NCBI GenBank assembly: GCA_025056965.1
Contig: JANWVF010000061.1
Coordinates: 1-51,589 of the forward strand
Length of the DNA stretch: 51,589 nucleotides
Source: Thermoflexales bacterium
GTDB lineage: Bacteria > Chloroflexota > Anaerolineae > J036 > Brachytrichaceae
Direction of reading: 5' to 3'
A model generated the notes under the pieces. That model was given only the letters and a program-made list of their open reading frames with translations, ran no database searches and was not told the DNA's origin. Positions 183 to 46,012 of this stretch are shown piece by piece (the stretch's first letter is position 1; each line of letters starts with the position of its first letter). A program made the position numbers and the translations under genes.

Positions 183-1060
183 ACGTTGTAGGCCAACAAG
201 ACGATCTCCGTTGCGCCCATGTTGGTCGAGCCGCTCGACTTGATCAGGCCCACGCCTGGCGCATACCAGCGTGCGTCGTCGCCCTCGAACGTGAAACCTG
301 GCATGCCGGCCGGTCCGCCGGAGAGGCTGATTTGAACGGTGGTCTTGCAGTTCACCCGCAGCGCCTCGAACGTGCCGGCCGGGACGGCGACGGCCTCGAT
401 TCCGACGGCCCGGCACGACGTCTCCGCTACGTTGCGCGACTCCATGGTGACGTCGCCGACCGTTTGCCGGCCGGAATAGACAATCTTCTGCGTCCAGGTC
501 TGGCCGGGCTGTGGGTCGGCCGGCAGCGAGATGCCCTCGTTCGACTCGACGGTGAAATCGGCCTGCATGTCTGCAGCGGCCACAGTCGCCCCGCCGGATG
601 GCGTGAGCGCGATCAGGTCGCCGTTCCGGCAGGCCCAGCTGCTGGTGCGCGTCGTCCCAGCGTCAAAAGTATCCTGGTCGTCGAAGCCATCCGGCCGGAC
701 AGCGGTGATGCGGCGGGTGAACGTGCCGCTGCTGATGCCACTGAGCCGATATTGCCACGAAGCGCCCTCGGCCACGGGCAGGTAGCGGTTTCCGCAAGCA
801 TCGGCGGCGACGGCGGCAGCCGTCGGGGTCGCCGGCGGGGTGGCCGTCGGTTGAGGGCTGGGCGTGGGCGGCGCGGTCGGCGATGCCTCAATCGCTGTCG
901 TTGCTGCCGCGGTGGCGGTGGGCGCCACCGTCGGCTCGGCAGTCGTCGGTGTGGCGACCGGCGCACTTGCCGATCCGTCCGAGCTGGTGGGTGCACCGGA
1001 TGAACAAGCCGATAACGCCAGCGCGAGCGCTAGGCAGGCAAAGCAAAGCCGTTTGGTCAT
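176..1060 (-). CDS. putative lipoprotein of unknown function
   Basis: 294 residues. The N-terminus is a lipoprotein signal peptide (MTKRL, a hydrophobic stretch, lipobox LSAC with Cys19). Residues about 20-90 are a Ser/Thr/Pro/Ala-rich spacer typical of surface proteins in this phylum. The rest (about 90-294) is a soluble domain containing 'YLPVAEGASWQYRLSG' and a late 'ARWYAPGVGLIKSS'. This pattern resembles extracytoplasmic proteins whose domain begins with a YxPxxxGxxWxY motif and ends near WYAxGVGxVK; their function is unknown. The ATG at 1060 has AGGGAG about 10 nt upstream. A TACATA -10 box and the SARP-type heptamer pair lie before it. It follows the SARP gene on the same strand but has its own promoter, so it is a likely direct target of that regulator. 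Confidence 0.75.
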   Translation of the reverse strand: MTKRLCFACLALALALSACSSGAPTSSDGSASAPVATPTTAEPTVAPTATAAATTAIEASPTAPPTPSPQPTATPPATPTAAAVAADACGNRYLPVAEGASWQYRLSGISSGTFTRRITAVRPDGFDDQDTFDAGTTRTSSWACRNGDLIALTPSGGATVAAADMQADFTVESNEGISLPADPQPGQTWTQKIVYSGRQTVGDVTMESRNVAETSCRAVGIEAVAVPAGTFEALRVNCKTTVQISLSGGPAGMPGFTFEGDDARWYAPGVGLIKSSGSTNMGATEIVLLAYNVP

Positions 1061-41605: not shown

Positions 41606-44600
41606 TTACCGCGTTGGGTTCAAGCGGATGATGATGCGCTGTGGCTCACTCTCAGCCCGCTGATCCGGAGTGTAGTAGTCGAAGGCGTCGCTCGGGGGCA
41701 CCCACGCGCGCACAGGGTAGCGCGCGCGTAATCGGTAGTTGAACGTCACTTCCTCGCCCGGCTCTAAGTAGTCCAAATACAGCGCGATGGCGCGACCGGA
41801 TACCTCGTAACGCGCCACTTTGCCCTGCTGCACCAGCGCCTCGAGGTCGCTGCGCACCGGCGTCAGGCCGGGCGGCACGCTGAGCCGCGCGACGACGACG
41901 CCGGCCGGATTCTGCCGCAGCAGGCGCACGCTAGCAGTGGCTGAGATTTCATCGTTCACAGCTACTTCCGTGCGGTTGTAGTCCACGCGCACTACCAGCG
42001 CGCCTTGGTCGCCGGAGCGCGCTCCCGGTATGCTCTCCCACGGTAAGTAGTAGCGAGTCACCGCCTGGTATAGCAGACGCGCATCGGCGTCACGCGCCTC
42101 CAGCGTCAACTCCGCCGCGCCGGCCGGCAAGTCCGCGAAGCGCACCTCCTGGAGCAGCGCTATGTCGTCCTCGGTGAAGACCAGCTCGCGGCGCGCTTCG
42201 CGCCCCTGGCTATCGCGCAGCGTTACGAGAACTGAGAAGTCTTCTGCGGCAGGGGGCTGCGCGACCGATGCCAATGCGCGCAGCGCTTGAACGGTCGCCT
42301 GCGTGGTGTGGAATCCGCCGTAAGGGTCACGATGGGCGGTCAGCCAGTCCACGGCCTCGGCGATGAGCTCGGGATAGAGGCCGGCCGCCCGGAGCGCCTG
42401 CACCGCCAGCGCGGTTGTTTCGATGCGCGCAGCCTCTCCGTAGCCGCCGAACAACGTCCCGCTTTCGGCATCCCACCATGCGCCCGTAACATCTCGCCGG
42501 GCCTGTGACGCAAGCGCGTCAATCACTGCCGAAGCGTCGTTGCCAGCGGCAAGCAGCGCATTGGCGGCCCATGCCAGAGCATAGCTATCGCTCTCATTCA
42601 GCGCAGCGCGCTGAATGTAGCTCACGCCCTCATACATCACTCTAGGCCGATAGCCGCTCTCGGCCAGCGCGCGCGTCGCGGATGCCGTCATGGCCAGGCG
42701 CATCCTATTGCTCTGCGCGCTGTATGCGACATCCCAGTCCCCATCCGAGCGTTGCTGATTGGCCAGCCACAAAGCCGCTTCGTCAATCAGCATCGGATCA
42801 ACATACGTCACTTGGTTGAGCTTGGCCAGCACATTCAGCAAGTGCGCCGATAGCTCGTTGGACGGTAGGCCGTAGCCCGGATAGAGCAAAAAGCCTCGCG
42901 GGCTACGGAAGTTGAGCAAGCGCTGGTAGCCTGCCTCGATGAATTGCTGCGCGCGGGCTTCCAGCTCCGGCGTGGCCTGGCCCGAGGCGCGCAAGTACTC
43001 GAGCACCATTAAGTTGACGTAAAGCAGGCTGCTAGTCTGCTCAAGGCAGCCGTAGGGCACTTGCAATAGACCCTCTAGGCTCTGCGCCAGCTGGCTATTC
43101 AGCGAAGGGTAGAGGCGCACGACCAACTGCGCCGTGCCCGGCAGCGCATCCTCAGGAATGTCTACAGGCAATGTGATGCGCGTCACGAGCCGGCCGCTGC
43201 GGGTTTGCGAGGTCAGCTTGCCGTTGGGCTGCACTTCCACGGGGCGTTCCACCGCATCGCCGAGGCGACCAGAACTGGCGTCAACGCGCAGCGAGAAGAT
43301 GCCCGGGCGCGTGACGCGGATCGGCAGGTAGGCGATGCCGACGTCGTTCGGCGCTAGAGCAACGGTTGCCTCGGCTTCGCCGATGAACTCGAACCAGTCG
43401 CTCGGCGCCAGGCGCACGCGCACCGACTGGGGCTGCGAGGTGTAGTTGAAGACGCTGACCGGCACGGCCACTTCATCTTCCACGGTGAGGAAGCGCGGCA
43501 GTTCCGGTTCGATGAAGAACTCCTGGAACACCTTCAGGGGAATCTCGGCGCCGGCCATGCGCCCTTCCAGGTCAGAGACGAGCGCGCTGACGCGCCACGT
43601 GGTGATCGAATCGGCCAGCGGCACGTTGAGGCTCGCGCGGCCGTTCTCATCGGTCTCCAGCTCTGGCAGCCAGAAGAGCGTCTCGGGGAAGAACTGGCGC
43701 AGGCGAGCCGGCGCGCCGGCTTGTTGATCTGCGCCTGAGCCGACGTCGGTTTGCGGCTGCTCTGCAGGCGGGGCTTCGACCGGCGCGGGAACCGCTTGCG
43801 CGATTTCGGGCGCGGATGGAGGTGACGCAGGCGCAACGCACGCGGAGAGGATGACGCTCACCAGGGCCAAGGCCAGCCCGATCAGCATCCAACGTCGTCG
43901 CCAACCGACCAGCGCCCAAACGACAGCTGGGGTTGCCAGGCCGACGCGCCAGGCGTAGTGCGCGACGACGCTCGCGTCGCCGCGCGCCGCTTTGGCTGCC
44001 GGCGCGGCCTGCGCATTCGCTAGCATTTGGCCGAACAGGCCGGCCAAGGCGCGCTCTTGCGAGCCGGCGATCAGCAAACTGGGCGTCGTATCCATGTCAT
44101 ACGGCGATGGATCGTCATCGCCCACGGTGTCGAACCCACGCACGCGATACGGCAGCTCTTGCAACTCACGCCGCAGCAAAAAGTAGCTGCGCGCAAAGCC
44201 GGCTGCGCGCGCCTCGCTCAGCCCGAACACCGATTCGTCCACGATGGACAATCCCACCGCGCCGCGCATCGGTTGGCCGTCGTCGTAGCGCGCCTGGATA
44301 GACAGCGCTGCCGTGTCGCCGGGGCGATACGTCTCCGCGTTCGGCGTCACATCGAGCTTGGCAGCGCGGGGGGTGACCAGAATATAGCGGCGATCGTAGG
44401 CGTAATTGCCGAACTCATCCACGACGAAGGCGCTTATGTCCAGCGTGCCGATCAGGCTGCCTTCCAGCAGCAGCGACGCGCGCGCGACATTCCCGCGAAC
44501 GGGTACCTCGATGACGGCAAAGCTCTGGCCGCCTTTCGCCACGCTGATGAAGCCTGCGGACGGCTTACCGTGCACCAACAGCTCGATCTCGGCGGTGTCG

Positions 44601-46012
44601 CCAACGGCATACTGCACGCGATTCGGCCGCACGAGCGCGCTCAGGCCCTCGTCCTGTGCCACGTTGAGCCGGAATTCATGCGTCGTTCGTTCCTGCGCTG
44701 CGTCGCCAACCTGCACCGTGAGCAAGAAGGGTGAATCCGCGCCGGCCGGCACGTCCACCGTGAGCGCGGCGAGGCCTTGTTCATCGGTCTGGGCACGGCT
44801 ACTCAGGAAGAGAGATCTTCTGGGATCGGAGAGTTGCACCCAGACCCCCTTCTCCGGCGTGCCGTCGGGGCGCTCGACGCTGATATACACGAGATTGGGC
44901 AGGCCGCGGCGTAGCACGCCGGACTCCGGCGCGACCTGCACCAAGCGCGGCGCGTCCAACACCTGCAACGTCTCGCGGATCGCCTCGGTATTGCCCGCTG
45001 CGTCGGCCACCTCGACGTGCAACTCGATGTTGGCCTTGAGACCGCGCGATGGGCCGGAGTCGTTGCGCCTAGGGAGCACGCTGTCGGGGATGTCGAACGA
45101 GTAAGCAAAGCGGCCTTGATCGTCGAGTCGCCCGCTCAGCTCGGCCAGCGCCAAGTTGCCCTGCGTCTTGACGGCGCGGACGACGACGCTCCCACCTGCG
45201 AGGGGCTTGCCGAAGACATAGCGCGCCTCGACTGTGCCGGCGGCCGTCTCACCGGGCAGATAGTGCAGACGGTCGGGCTGCAGCGTGACCTTGAAGCGCG
45301 GCAAGGCGTAGGGCTTTACTTCGACGGTGCGGGTCATCACCATAGATTTGGACTCGGCCACGACCCGATACGCGCCACTGGCTGCCTCGGCATCCAGCAC
45401 GAAGTCGGCGCCGGCGATGCCGTACTGGCTAGTGTTCAACACGCGACGCTGCAAACGAAGGCCTTGTGGATCAACCAACGTTAGCGTGATTGGCTGCTGG
45501 GCCACGGCGCGCAGGTCATAGGTGTCCAGCACGAGCGCGCGCGTGTGGATCGTCTGACCCGGCTGGTAAATGGGCTTATCGGTGGTCACCAGCACATCAT
45601 GGTTGCGACCCAAGAAAACCGGATAGCGCATACCCCGGGGGGCACCTCGCCGCGATTGCGCGCGCACCTCAAGTTCCGCCGGTCCTTCGACGAGCGGCGC
45701 ATCAAATGTGACGCGCACCGCACCGCTAAAGTCGGTCTCGCCGGTGAACACGACTTCACCATTGCCCCCCTGCGGACGCAGCAGGACTTCCACGCGCTGA
45801 CCTTCGAGCGAATCACTCCCCGACTCCGAGCGGATGCTTTCGTCTTTGCCCACGTGCACCACGAACTCCACCCGCTGACCGGGTATCAAGTAGTTGACAG
45901 AGCCGAACAGGCGAATGTTCGCCGGTGGAGTGAGCGGTGGAACCGGATAACACGCAAGCAGCAGTGTGAGCGCAGGCACGGTGACCAGCAAGCGTTGCCA
46001 TCGTCCTCGCAT
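41606..46012 (-). CDS. bacterial alpha-2-macroglobulin with an internal second lipoprotein signal
   Basis: 1468 residues from the ATG at 46012, chosen because AGGAGGG lies 8 nt upstream. The N-terminus is a lipoprotein signal (MRGRWQRLLV, lipobox LLAC, Cys21). Macroglobulin (MG) domains with 'DKPIYQPGQTIHTRALVLD' follow. At about 680-725, where a bait region might be expected, there are two hydrophobic segments around VGWRRRWML, the second ending in lipobox LSAC (Cys725). A Pro/Ala/Gln linker leads to 'FFPETLFWLPEL' and the thioester domain GCLEQTSS (Cys989), then the receptor-binding-like C-terminus. The family traps attacking proteases, usually in the periplasm or on the surface. No pbpC-type partner adjoins it. 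Promoter elements were not resolved. A strong terminator follows. Confidence 0.92.
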   Translation of the reverse strand: MRGRWQRLLVTVPALTLLLACYPVPPLTPPANIRLFGSVNYLIPGQRVEFVVHVGKDESIRSESGSDSLEGQRVEVLLRPQGGNGEVVFTGETDFSGAVRVTFDAPLVEGPAELEVRAQSRRGAPRGMRYPVFLGRNHDVLVTTDKPIYQPGQTIHTRALVLDTYDLRAVAQQPITLTLVDPQGLRLQRRVLNTSQYGIAGADFVLDAEAASGAYRVVAESKSMVMTRTVEVKPYALPRFKVTLQPDRLHYLPGETAAGTVEARYVFGKPLAGGSVVVRAVKTQGNLALAELSGRLDDQGRFAYSFDIPDSVLPRRNDSGPSRGLKANIELHVEVADAAGNTEAIRETLQVLDAPRLVQVAPESGVLRRGLPNLVYISVERPDGTPEKGVWVQLSDPRRSLFLSSRAQTDEQGLAALTVDVPAGADSPFLLTVQVGDAAQERTTHEFRLNVAQDEGLSALVRPNRVQYAVGDTAEIELLVHGKPSAGFISVAKGGQSFAVIEVPVRGNVARASLLLEGSLIGTLDISAFVVDEFGNYAYDRRYILVTPRAAKLDVTPNAETYRPGDTAALSIQARYDDGQPMRGAVGLSIVDESVFGLSEARAAGFARSYFLLRRELQELPYRVRGFDTVGDDDPSPYDMDTTPSLLIAGSQERALAGLFGQMLANAQAAPAAKAARGDASVVAHYAWRVGLATPAVVWALVGWRRRWMLIGLALALVSVILSACVAPASPPSAPEIAQAVPAPVEAPPAEQPQTDVGSGADQQAGAPARLRQFFPETLFWLPELETDENGRASLNVPLADSITTWRVSALVSDLEGRMAGAEIPLKVFQEFFIEPELPRFLTVEDEVAVPVSVFNYTSQPQSVRVRLAPSDWFEFIGEAEATVALAPNDVGIAYLPIRVTRPGIFSLRVDASSGRLGDAVERPVEVQPNGKLTSQTRSGRLVTRITLPVDIPEDALPGTAQLVVRLYPSLNSQLAQSLEGLLQVPYGCLEQTSSLLYVNLMVLEYLRASGQATPELEARAQQFIEAGYQRLLNFRSPRGFLLYPGYGLPSNELSAHLLNVLAKLNQVTYVDPMLIDEAALWLANQQRSDGDWDVAYSAQSNRMRLAMTASATRALAESGYRPRVMYEGVSYIQRAALNESDSYALAWAANALLAAGNDASAVIDALASQARRDVTGAWWDAESGTLFGGYGEAARIETTALAVQALRAAGLYPELIAEAVDWLTAHRDPYGGFHTTQATVQALRALASVAQPPAAEDFSVLVTLRDSQGREARRELVFTEDDIALLQEVRFADLPAGAAELTLEARDADARLLYQAVTRYYLPWESIPGARSGDQGALVVRVDYNRTEVAVNDEISATASVRLLRQNPAGVVVARLSVPPGLTPVRSDLEALVQQGKVARYEVSGRAIALYLDYLEPGEEVTFNYRLRARYPVRAWVPPSDAFDYYTPDQRAESEPQRIIIRLNPTR

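What the first reader, a model, noticed from the sequence alone, without database searches (positions are those of the whole stretch)
41606..46012. Alpha-2-macroglobulin with two lipoprotein-type signals and a mid-protein membrane hairpin
Besides Cys21 at the N-terminus, a second n-region (GWRRRWML), hydrophobic core and LSAC lipobox end at Cys725. A hydrophobic segment just before it would return the chain to the membrane. The protein could be anchored at both places, or cut at Cys725 to give two lipid-anchored halves, with the thioester (Cys989) in the second. The segment lies where a bait region might sit.
Basis: partly seen in the sequence, partly recalled or inferred. Interest (0 to 1): 0.65.

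Follow-up and report, generated by a model that had tools for sequence, protein, structure and literature searches.

The report
Macroglobulin with membrane-embedded bait region
This bacterial cousin of the human protease trap alpha-2-macroglobulin appears to be threaded into the cell membrane at the very place where its relatives carry the protease bait; its own relatives there carry up to six membrane spans, and some replace the reactive cysteine by what looks like selenocysteine.

Summary
P0001 (window 41606-46012, minus) is an alpha-2-macroglobulin (A2M) with an N-terminal lipobox (Cys21) and, mid-protein, a positive stretch (GWRRRW), a strong hydrophobic core and an LSAC lipobox at Cys725; thioester Cys989. 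The preceding 'return' segment is only weakly hydrophobic. The block lies in the bait-region slot: an AlphaFold2 model puts both flanks into one MG domain that matches the bait-bearing domain of E. coli A2M (2.1 A over 108 residues). Relatives decide the matter: across Chloroflexota and other phyla the same slot holds a membrane domain, six spans in most, fewer in some, none in an Armatimonadota-rich clade. Loop charges put both halves outside. A lipobox-like Cys follows the last span in 17 of 62 membrane-type proteins. I read it as an A2M whose bait slot is a membrane tether: only the short linker between tether and the conserved plug is bait, so the fired trap stays on the cell. Lipidation or cleavage at Cys725 is possible but unproven. 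Beyond the question, 22 relatives have in-frame UGA exactly at the thioester Cys, most with a SECIS-like hairpin, and some are fused to anti-sigma domains behind ECF sigma genes.

The parts
41606..46012 (-). A2M gene, 1468 aa (P0001), ATG start
   Evidence: Pfam MG2, MG3, MG4, A2M_BRD, A2M, TED, A2M_recep
45950..46012 (-). N-terminal lipoprotein signal, residues 1-21, lipobox LLAC, Cys21
   Evidence: sequence; hydropathy
44219..44632 (-). A2M_BRD (PF07703), residues 461-598, first part of the bait-bearing domain
43952..44155 (-). linker before the membrane block, residues 620-687, low model confidence
43904..43948 (-). weak hydrophobic segment (proposed first span), residues 689-703
   Evidence: KD 1.31-1.42, marginal
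43889..43906 (-). positive loop GWRRRW, residues 703-708 (proposed cytoplasmic)
   Evidence: sequence; loop-charge pattern of relatives
43838..43888 (-). strong span 709-724 with internal lipobox LSAC ending at Cys725
   Evidence: lipobox recurs in relatives
43700..43837 (-). Ala/Pro/Gln-rich linker 726-771, proposed true bait
   Evidence: sequence; low-confidence linker in models; function inferred
43688..43699 (-). alpha'NT plug R772..F775, counterpart of A2M R732/F735
   Evidence: invariant in A1; role from PMC9352918 passages
43409..43681 (-). A2M domain (PF00207), residues 778-868
42269..43090 (-). thioester domain (TED), residues 975-1248
43037..43057 (-). thioester motif PYGCLEQ, Cys989; in 22 relatives the Cys codon is TGA
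41648..41902 (-). A2M receptor-binding domain, residues 1371-1455

Best explanation
It is a thioester A2M in which a membrane tether fills the bait-region slot. The chain leaves the cell at Cys21 (lipid anchor), folds MG1 to the first half of MG6 outside, dips into the membrane by a short hairpin (weak span 689-703, positive loop 703-708 inside, strong span 709-725), and comes out again to complete MG6, MG7, CUB, TED and the receptor-like domain. The protein lies on the outer face of the membrane, held at two points. The protease-sensitive stretch is then the linker of about 46 residues between Cys725 and the conserved plug (R772/F775). [quoted passage not shown] Here a cut between tether and plug would let the plug retract, expose the thioester and conjugate the protease, at the cell surface. 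A cut before the tether should not free the plug, because the tether cannot pass the channel. Shown: position in the slot, domain order, conserved plug, membrane blocks in the same slot of relatives, both-sides-outside topology by charge in relatives. Inferred: the hairpin in the window protein itself, the bait role of the linker, surface retention.
For: Domains and motifs. Window model (455-880): one MG domain built from both flanks superposes on E. coli A2M 4ziq 855..1021, 108 residues, rmsd 2.1, Z 13.9; same for six-span relative L085 on 4rtd, 105 residues, rmsd 2.1, Z 13.0. Membrane blocks in relatives: six peaks in 56 of 74 distinct inserts (my tally of the rows), two in 3, none in 11; six helices with block pLDDT mostly 82-95 in L085. 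Loop net charge alternates +2.75, -0.75, +1.84, -1.16, +1.75 over 44 six-span inserts. Two-span L141/L151 nest among six-span proteins, so the block can shrink without losing the architecture. R772 and F775 invariant in 17 of 17 rows. A neighbouring gene has a 63% identical relative in the same family of genomes, so the contig is unlikely to be foreign.
Against: First span of the window protein is marginal and was not counted by the automatic method; AlphaFold2 drew one long helix there (block pLDDT about 43-76), not a hairpin. Parity is not clean: the second counting method gave seven spans in 11 of 73 inserts, the first gave odd counts in 3 of 74. The window protein is a lone long branch (1.5-2.3 changes per site) and no match at E<=1e-55 was found in 27 other genomes of its order, so relatives may not speak for it in detail. 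No protease or substrate is known.
Confidence: 0.66

Rival explanations
1. Lgt lipidates Cys725 and LspA cuts before it, giving two lipid-anchored chains, much as pro-C3 is cut in the same slot without being activated (recalled); the lipid anchor then acts as a stopper that keeps the plug in its channel until a protease cuts 726-771.
For: LSAC with n-region and core at Cys725; recurring lipobox-like Cys at this place in 16 of 61 membrane-type relatives; LspA and Lgt in the window genome and 18 relatives.
Against: In 12 of those 16 relatives the Cys stands roughly 25-50 residues after the last strong span (for L119 only if the weak seventh segment is not counted), an unusual geometry for Lgt; 45 of 61 lack it; a chain break in the bait slot is what triggers ordinary A2Ms.
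Confidence: 0.35
2. It is a protease or envelope-stress sensor rather than a trap: bait cleavage is passed through the membrane, as relatives fused to anti-sigma domains suggest.
For: zf-HC2 N-termini in 8 scanned relatives; ECF sigma gene directly upstream in 9 of 9 loci scanned, these being one BLAST cluster of neighbours.
Against: The window protein has no anti-sigma domain, starts as a lipoprotein, and none of the seven nearby genes scanned is a sigma factor; its thioester is intact.
Confidence: 0.2
3. The hydrophobic stretch is merely a hydrophobic bait or buried packing segment; no membrane insertion.
For: Weak first span; bait regions vary freely (recalled); 11 of 74 relatives' inserts have no hydrophobic block.
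Against: KD 2.74 over 17 residues flanked by RRR and LSAC; six-span domains in the same slot of relatives; both flanks already complete the MG domain in the model without it.
Confidence: 0.1
4. Two products: an internal start yields a separate C-terminal lipoprotein from codon 709.
For: MLIGLALALVSVILSAC could open a lipoprotein.
Against: No Shine-Dalgarno-like sequence before codon 709, no basic n-region after that start, frame open through; most relatives read through.
Confidence: 0.04

Closest known systems
Eukaryotic A2M-type thioester proteins (A2ML1, CD109, A2M, TEP1)
   Same: Nearest solved sequences (A2ML1 E 1.4e-55, CD109 9.6e-52); MG/BRD/TED/RBD order, CxEQ thioester, R..F plug
   Different: Bait slot holds a membrane segment; lipid anchor at the N-terminus; I recall no eukaryotic member with spans in this slot
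Type I bacterial A2M, E. coli YfhM / Salmonella
   Same: Lipoprotein signal, thioester, bait-bearing MG domain superposes
   Different: Much weaker sequence match (3.9e-20); little sequence before MG2 for the extra MG0/NIE domains described for bacterial homologs; no pbpC among nearby genes scanned; soluble bait replaced
Complement C3/C4/C5
   Same: Another domain (anaphylatoxin) sits in the same slot and the chain is processed there (recalled)
   Different: Insert is membrane-type, no anaphylatoxin match
MagD (Type II) A2M of Pseudomonas aeruginosa
   Same: A2M held at the inner membrane
   Different: MagD lacks CxEQ, lipobox and spans and is tethered by MagB (PMC5764988, passages seen)
Transmembrane anti-sigma factors of ECF sigma pairs
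   Same: Some relatives (L041, L119, L121 and others) have zf-HC2 plus a span and an upstream ECF gene
   Different: The window protein has neither

Membership tests
Alpha-2-macroglobulin superfamily, thioester type | MG, BRD, A2M, TED and receptor-binding domains in order | tested here: met
   MG2, MG3, MG4, A2M_BRD, A2M, TED, A2M_recep all above Pfam cut-offs
Alpha-2-macroglobulin superfamily, thioester type | CxEQ thioester motif | tested here: met
   PYGCLEQ at 986-992
Alpha-2-macroglobulin superfamily, thioester type | insertion (bait) inside the MG6-type domain | tested here: met
   content is membrane-type, not soluble
Alpha-2-macroglobulin superfamily, thioester type | plug residues R..F before PET | tested here: met
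   R772, F775 invariant; role from PMC9352918
Alpha-2-macroglobulin superfamily, thioester type | bait cleavage triggers covalent protease trapping | not testable with these tools
   needs biochemistry
Type I bacterial A2M (YfhM-like) | operon with pbpC | tested here: not met
   seven nearby genes scanned: M20 peptidase, MFS, AAA_14/DUF4143, unknown, NUDIX, Clp ATPase, alpha/beta-hydrolase; definition
Type I bacterial A2M (YfhM-like) | extra N-terminal MG0/NIE domains | tested here: inconclusive
   MG2 starts at residue 140 and no domain was matched before it; MG0/NIE were not sought as such; definition
Bacterial lipoprotein (Cys21) | lipobox and Lgt/LspA in genome | tested here: met
Bacterial lipoprotein (Cys725) | lipobox at the outer end of an in-to-out span | tested here: inconclusive
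   LSAC after span 709-724; orientation inferred
Bacterial lipoprotein (Cys725) | diacylglyceryl-Cys and LspA cut | not testable with these tools
   needs mass spectrometry
ECF anti-sigma factor (as some relatives) | cytoplasmic anti-sigma domain and adjacent ECF gene | tested here: not met
   for the window
Selenoprotein (22 relatives, not the window) | in-frame UGA at a Cys position with a downstream SECIS-like hairpin | tested here: met
   hairpin not clear in L138 and L149
Selenoprotein (22 relatives, not the window) | Sec machinery in the genome | tested here: met
   10 genomes tested: strong tRNA-Sec and SelB over cut-off in 9, weaker in G012; 12 named loci not tested
Selenoprotein (22 relatives, not the window) | selenium in the protein | not testable with these tools
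   needs 75Se labelling or mass spectrometry

The most novel reading that the evidence does not exclude
A membrane-knotted macroglobulin family: the bait slot is a membrane stopper (spans, or a lipidated internal Cys made by Lgt/LspA) that holds the trigger plug in place, so that a cut in one short linker fires a surface-retained trap; in relatives the warhead is a selenocysteine selenoester, and in others the same receptor is wired through an anti-sigma domain to an ECF sigma factor, making this A2M lineage a protease sensor as well as a trap.
Probability: 0.25. Interest if true: 0.92.

Novelty: new variant of a known kind. Interest (0 to 1): 0.74.

Why it matters
A2Ms, complement C3 and insect TEPs share one trigger: a chain break in the bait slot. 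A natural family in which that slot is anchored in the membrane, in blocks of six, fewer or no spans, lets one test which side of the slot must be cut and whether the plug must retract. It also offers a way by which a cell could keep a fired trap on its surface. The relatives with in-frame UGA at the thioester would be, if confirmed, a protein selenoester as a covalent warhead, a chemistry I found in none of my literature searches, and the sigma-linked members would make A2M a signalling receptor.

Tried and rejected
Internal start giving a separate C-terminal lipoprotein: no Shine-Dalgarno-like sequence. Homology of the window hairpin to one particular span pair of the six-span domain: not resolved; best was spans 5-6 (4 of 300 full shuffles and 12 of 300 block shuffles as high), others nearer chance. 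Placing the window protein by tree: long branch, position unsure in both trees, so loss of spans versus an ancestral two-span state stays open for it. Known fold or family for the membrane domain: no confident Pfam match (weak DUF2070 at 0.062), the PDB sequence search gave one chance-level hit; structure searches were filled by the MG domains, so a known fold for the six-span part is not excluded. First scan of genome contigs with P0001 alone confirmed no relatives; the profile scan did. Contamination of the contig: a neighbouring gene has a 63% identical relative in the same family of genomes. NCBIfam gave no match over cut-off. Reading UGA as a general sense codon: not pursued beyond noting that frames are otherwise open, with one TGA in most such rows and in addition one TAG in two of them, and that SelB and tRNA-Sec are present.

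Literature searches on these points: searches returned no paper; some searches returned listings in which I saw no paper on membrane bait regions, selenocysteine A2M or A2M anti-sigma factors (only the listed part was read). The library is open-access only. Papers: passages seen of PMC5764988, PMC12939704, PMC9352918 (abstract and passages); the rest listings only.
Full report
CHECK. The gene at 41606-46012 (minus) encodes 1468 aa with all stated motifs at the stated residues. Pfam gives a full thioester A2M: MG2 140-223, MG3, MG4, A2M_BRD 461-598, A2M 778-868, TED 975-1248, receptor domain 1371-1455. The 709-725 core is the most hydrophobic stretch (KD 2.74), preceded by GWRRRW and ended by LSAC. 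The segment before it is marginal (KD 1.31).

RELATIVES. In a class sample of 199 genomes, 171 have some match to P0001 at E<=0.001, but many of these are other A2Ms; strong full-length relatives appear in a subset. None of 27 other genomes of the order has a match at E<=1e-55; 14 of 399 other genomes of a phylum sample do at 1e-60. A profile scan of named genomes gave 78 distinct loci (best 80 kept of 538), mainly Chloroflexota, also Planctomycetota, Verrucomicrobiota, Omnitrophota, Armatimonadota, Poribacteria and others by record title. Most of the Chloroflexota relatives are longer than P0001, and the extra length is in the bait slot.

THE SLOT. Between the end of the BRD half and the FPET motif, relatives carry hydrophobic blocks. 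By peak picking, my tally is six in 56 of 74 distinct inserts, five in 1, four in 1, three in 2, two in 3, none in 11 (rows whose insert could not be delimited were left out). A second method gave, over 73 inserts, six in 44, seven in 11, four in 3, two in 3, one in 1 (the window), none in 11; 25 rows could not be parsed and were left out. The seven-span counts weaken a strict parity rule, although most of the extra segments are weak. Net charge of loops alternates, odd loops positive, over 44 six-span inserts, as expected if both halves are outside and odd loops inside. AlphaFold2 on L085 (545 aa, 53 rows) gives six helices, block pLDDT mostly 82-95.

POSITION. In the window model (426 aa, 43 rows, mean pLDDT 76, pTM 0.52) residues 94..378, that is P0001 548-832, match one domain of E. 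coli A2M (4ziq 855..1021, 108 aligned, 2.1 A, Z 13.9). L085 does the same (4rtd, 105 aligned, 2.1 A, Z 13.0). So the block interrupts the bait-bearing domain and is not part of its core. The hairpin itself is modelled poorly, as one long helix.

INTERNAL LIPOBOX. After the last span, 13 of 62 membrane-type rows (window included) fit a lipobox pattern; L048 and L051, L067, L119 carry variants that the pattern or its frame missed, so 17 of 62. Cys density in this linker is 4.4 per 1000 against 0.4 and 0.9 in the flanking extracellular parts. In L037, L048, L051 and L067 the Cys follows the span directly, as in the window. In the other relatives it lies about 25-50 residues further (in L119 by the same reading as its close relative L041). 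Lgt and LspA are present in 19 of 19 genomes tested.

EVOLUTION. Two-span L141/L151 nest among six-span proteins, so spans have been lost there. The window protein is a long branch near the base; its place is unsure. In the clade without spans the slot of the two members scanned holds a GspG-like domain (T2SSG: L160 27.3 bits over a cut-off of 21, L153 18.8 under it). The slot thus accepts quite different inserts.

MECHANISM. [quoted passage not shown] The matching R772 and F775 are invariant in 17 of 17 rows here. With a membrane tether before this plug, only cuts between tether and plug should let it retract. The N-terminal lipid and the tether would keep the molecule, with any trapped protease, at the membrane unless the cut frees the C-terminal half from the other domains. 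This is inference. If LspA did cut at Cys725, the lipid could serve as the same stopper.

BEYOND THE QUESTION. In 22 distinct relatives the thioester Cys codon is TGA in an otherwise open frame (G-TGA-xEQ was the search rule). Directly downstream, 87.7% of cells of a 7-bp hairpin pair in these 22 against 30.3% in 57 Cys relatives (58 were listed; one with N was left out), with a UA to GU change on both sides in 7 rows. L138 and L149 (Planctomycetota) do not fit this hairpin well. Strong tRNA-Sec matches occur in 9 of the 10 genomes tested of this set, G012 being weaker, and SelB over cut-off in the same 9, with a split match in G012; genomes with Cys versions mostly have them too. Eight scanned relatives have zf-HC2 N-termini, and the upstream gene is an ECF sigma factor in 9 of 9 loci scanned, chosen because these neighbours formed one BLAST cluster.

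VERDICT. A real and unusual variant of a known family. The two-anchor reading is likely; the two-chain reading is open.

Noticed in passing
L033:4126-4173, L036:4828-4875, L109:11388-11435, L149:11274-11321 and 18 more: In-frame TGA at the A2M thioester Cys with a SECIS-like hairpin (GTACGTC-GGY-GACGTAC) 13 nt on: candidate selenocysteine/selenoester A2M in Chloroflexota, and two Planctomycetota rows where the hairpin is unclear.
   Followed up: yes
L041:3539-5144, L119:1-1288, L059-L061, L064, L121, L143, L145: ECF sigma factor gene directly upstream of A2M-family genes; in L041, L119, L059, L060, L061 and L121 (plus L124 and L138) the A2M protein starts with a zf-HC2 anti-sigma domain.
   Followed up: partly
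L059, L060, L061 (Pfam); L062-L064 by length and hydropathy: Shorter relatives: anti-sigma-like N-terminus, MG domains, a multi-span block, second half of MG6, and no thioester domain found in the scanned ones.
   Followed up: partly
L153:9357-10799, L160:7029-8507: GspG-like (T2SSG) soluble domain in the bait slot of span-less relatives.
   Followed up: partly
window 41606-46012: The protein is nearer in sequence to human A2ML1/CD109 (E 1.4e-55, 9.6e-52) than to E. coli YfhM (3.9e-20), which bears on the origin of animal thioester proteins.
   Followed up: no
G000:C53:53133-53405: A second A2M in the window's genome, only distantly alike.
   Followed up: no
L140 and L142: A2M frames split in two overlapping ORFs; assembly error or real split not resolved.
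   Followed up: no
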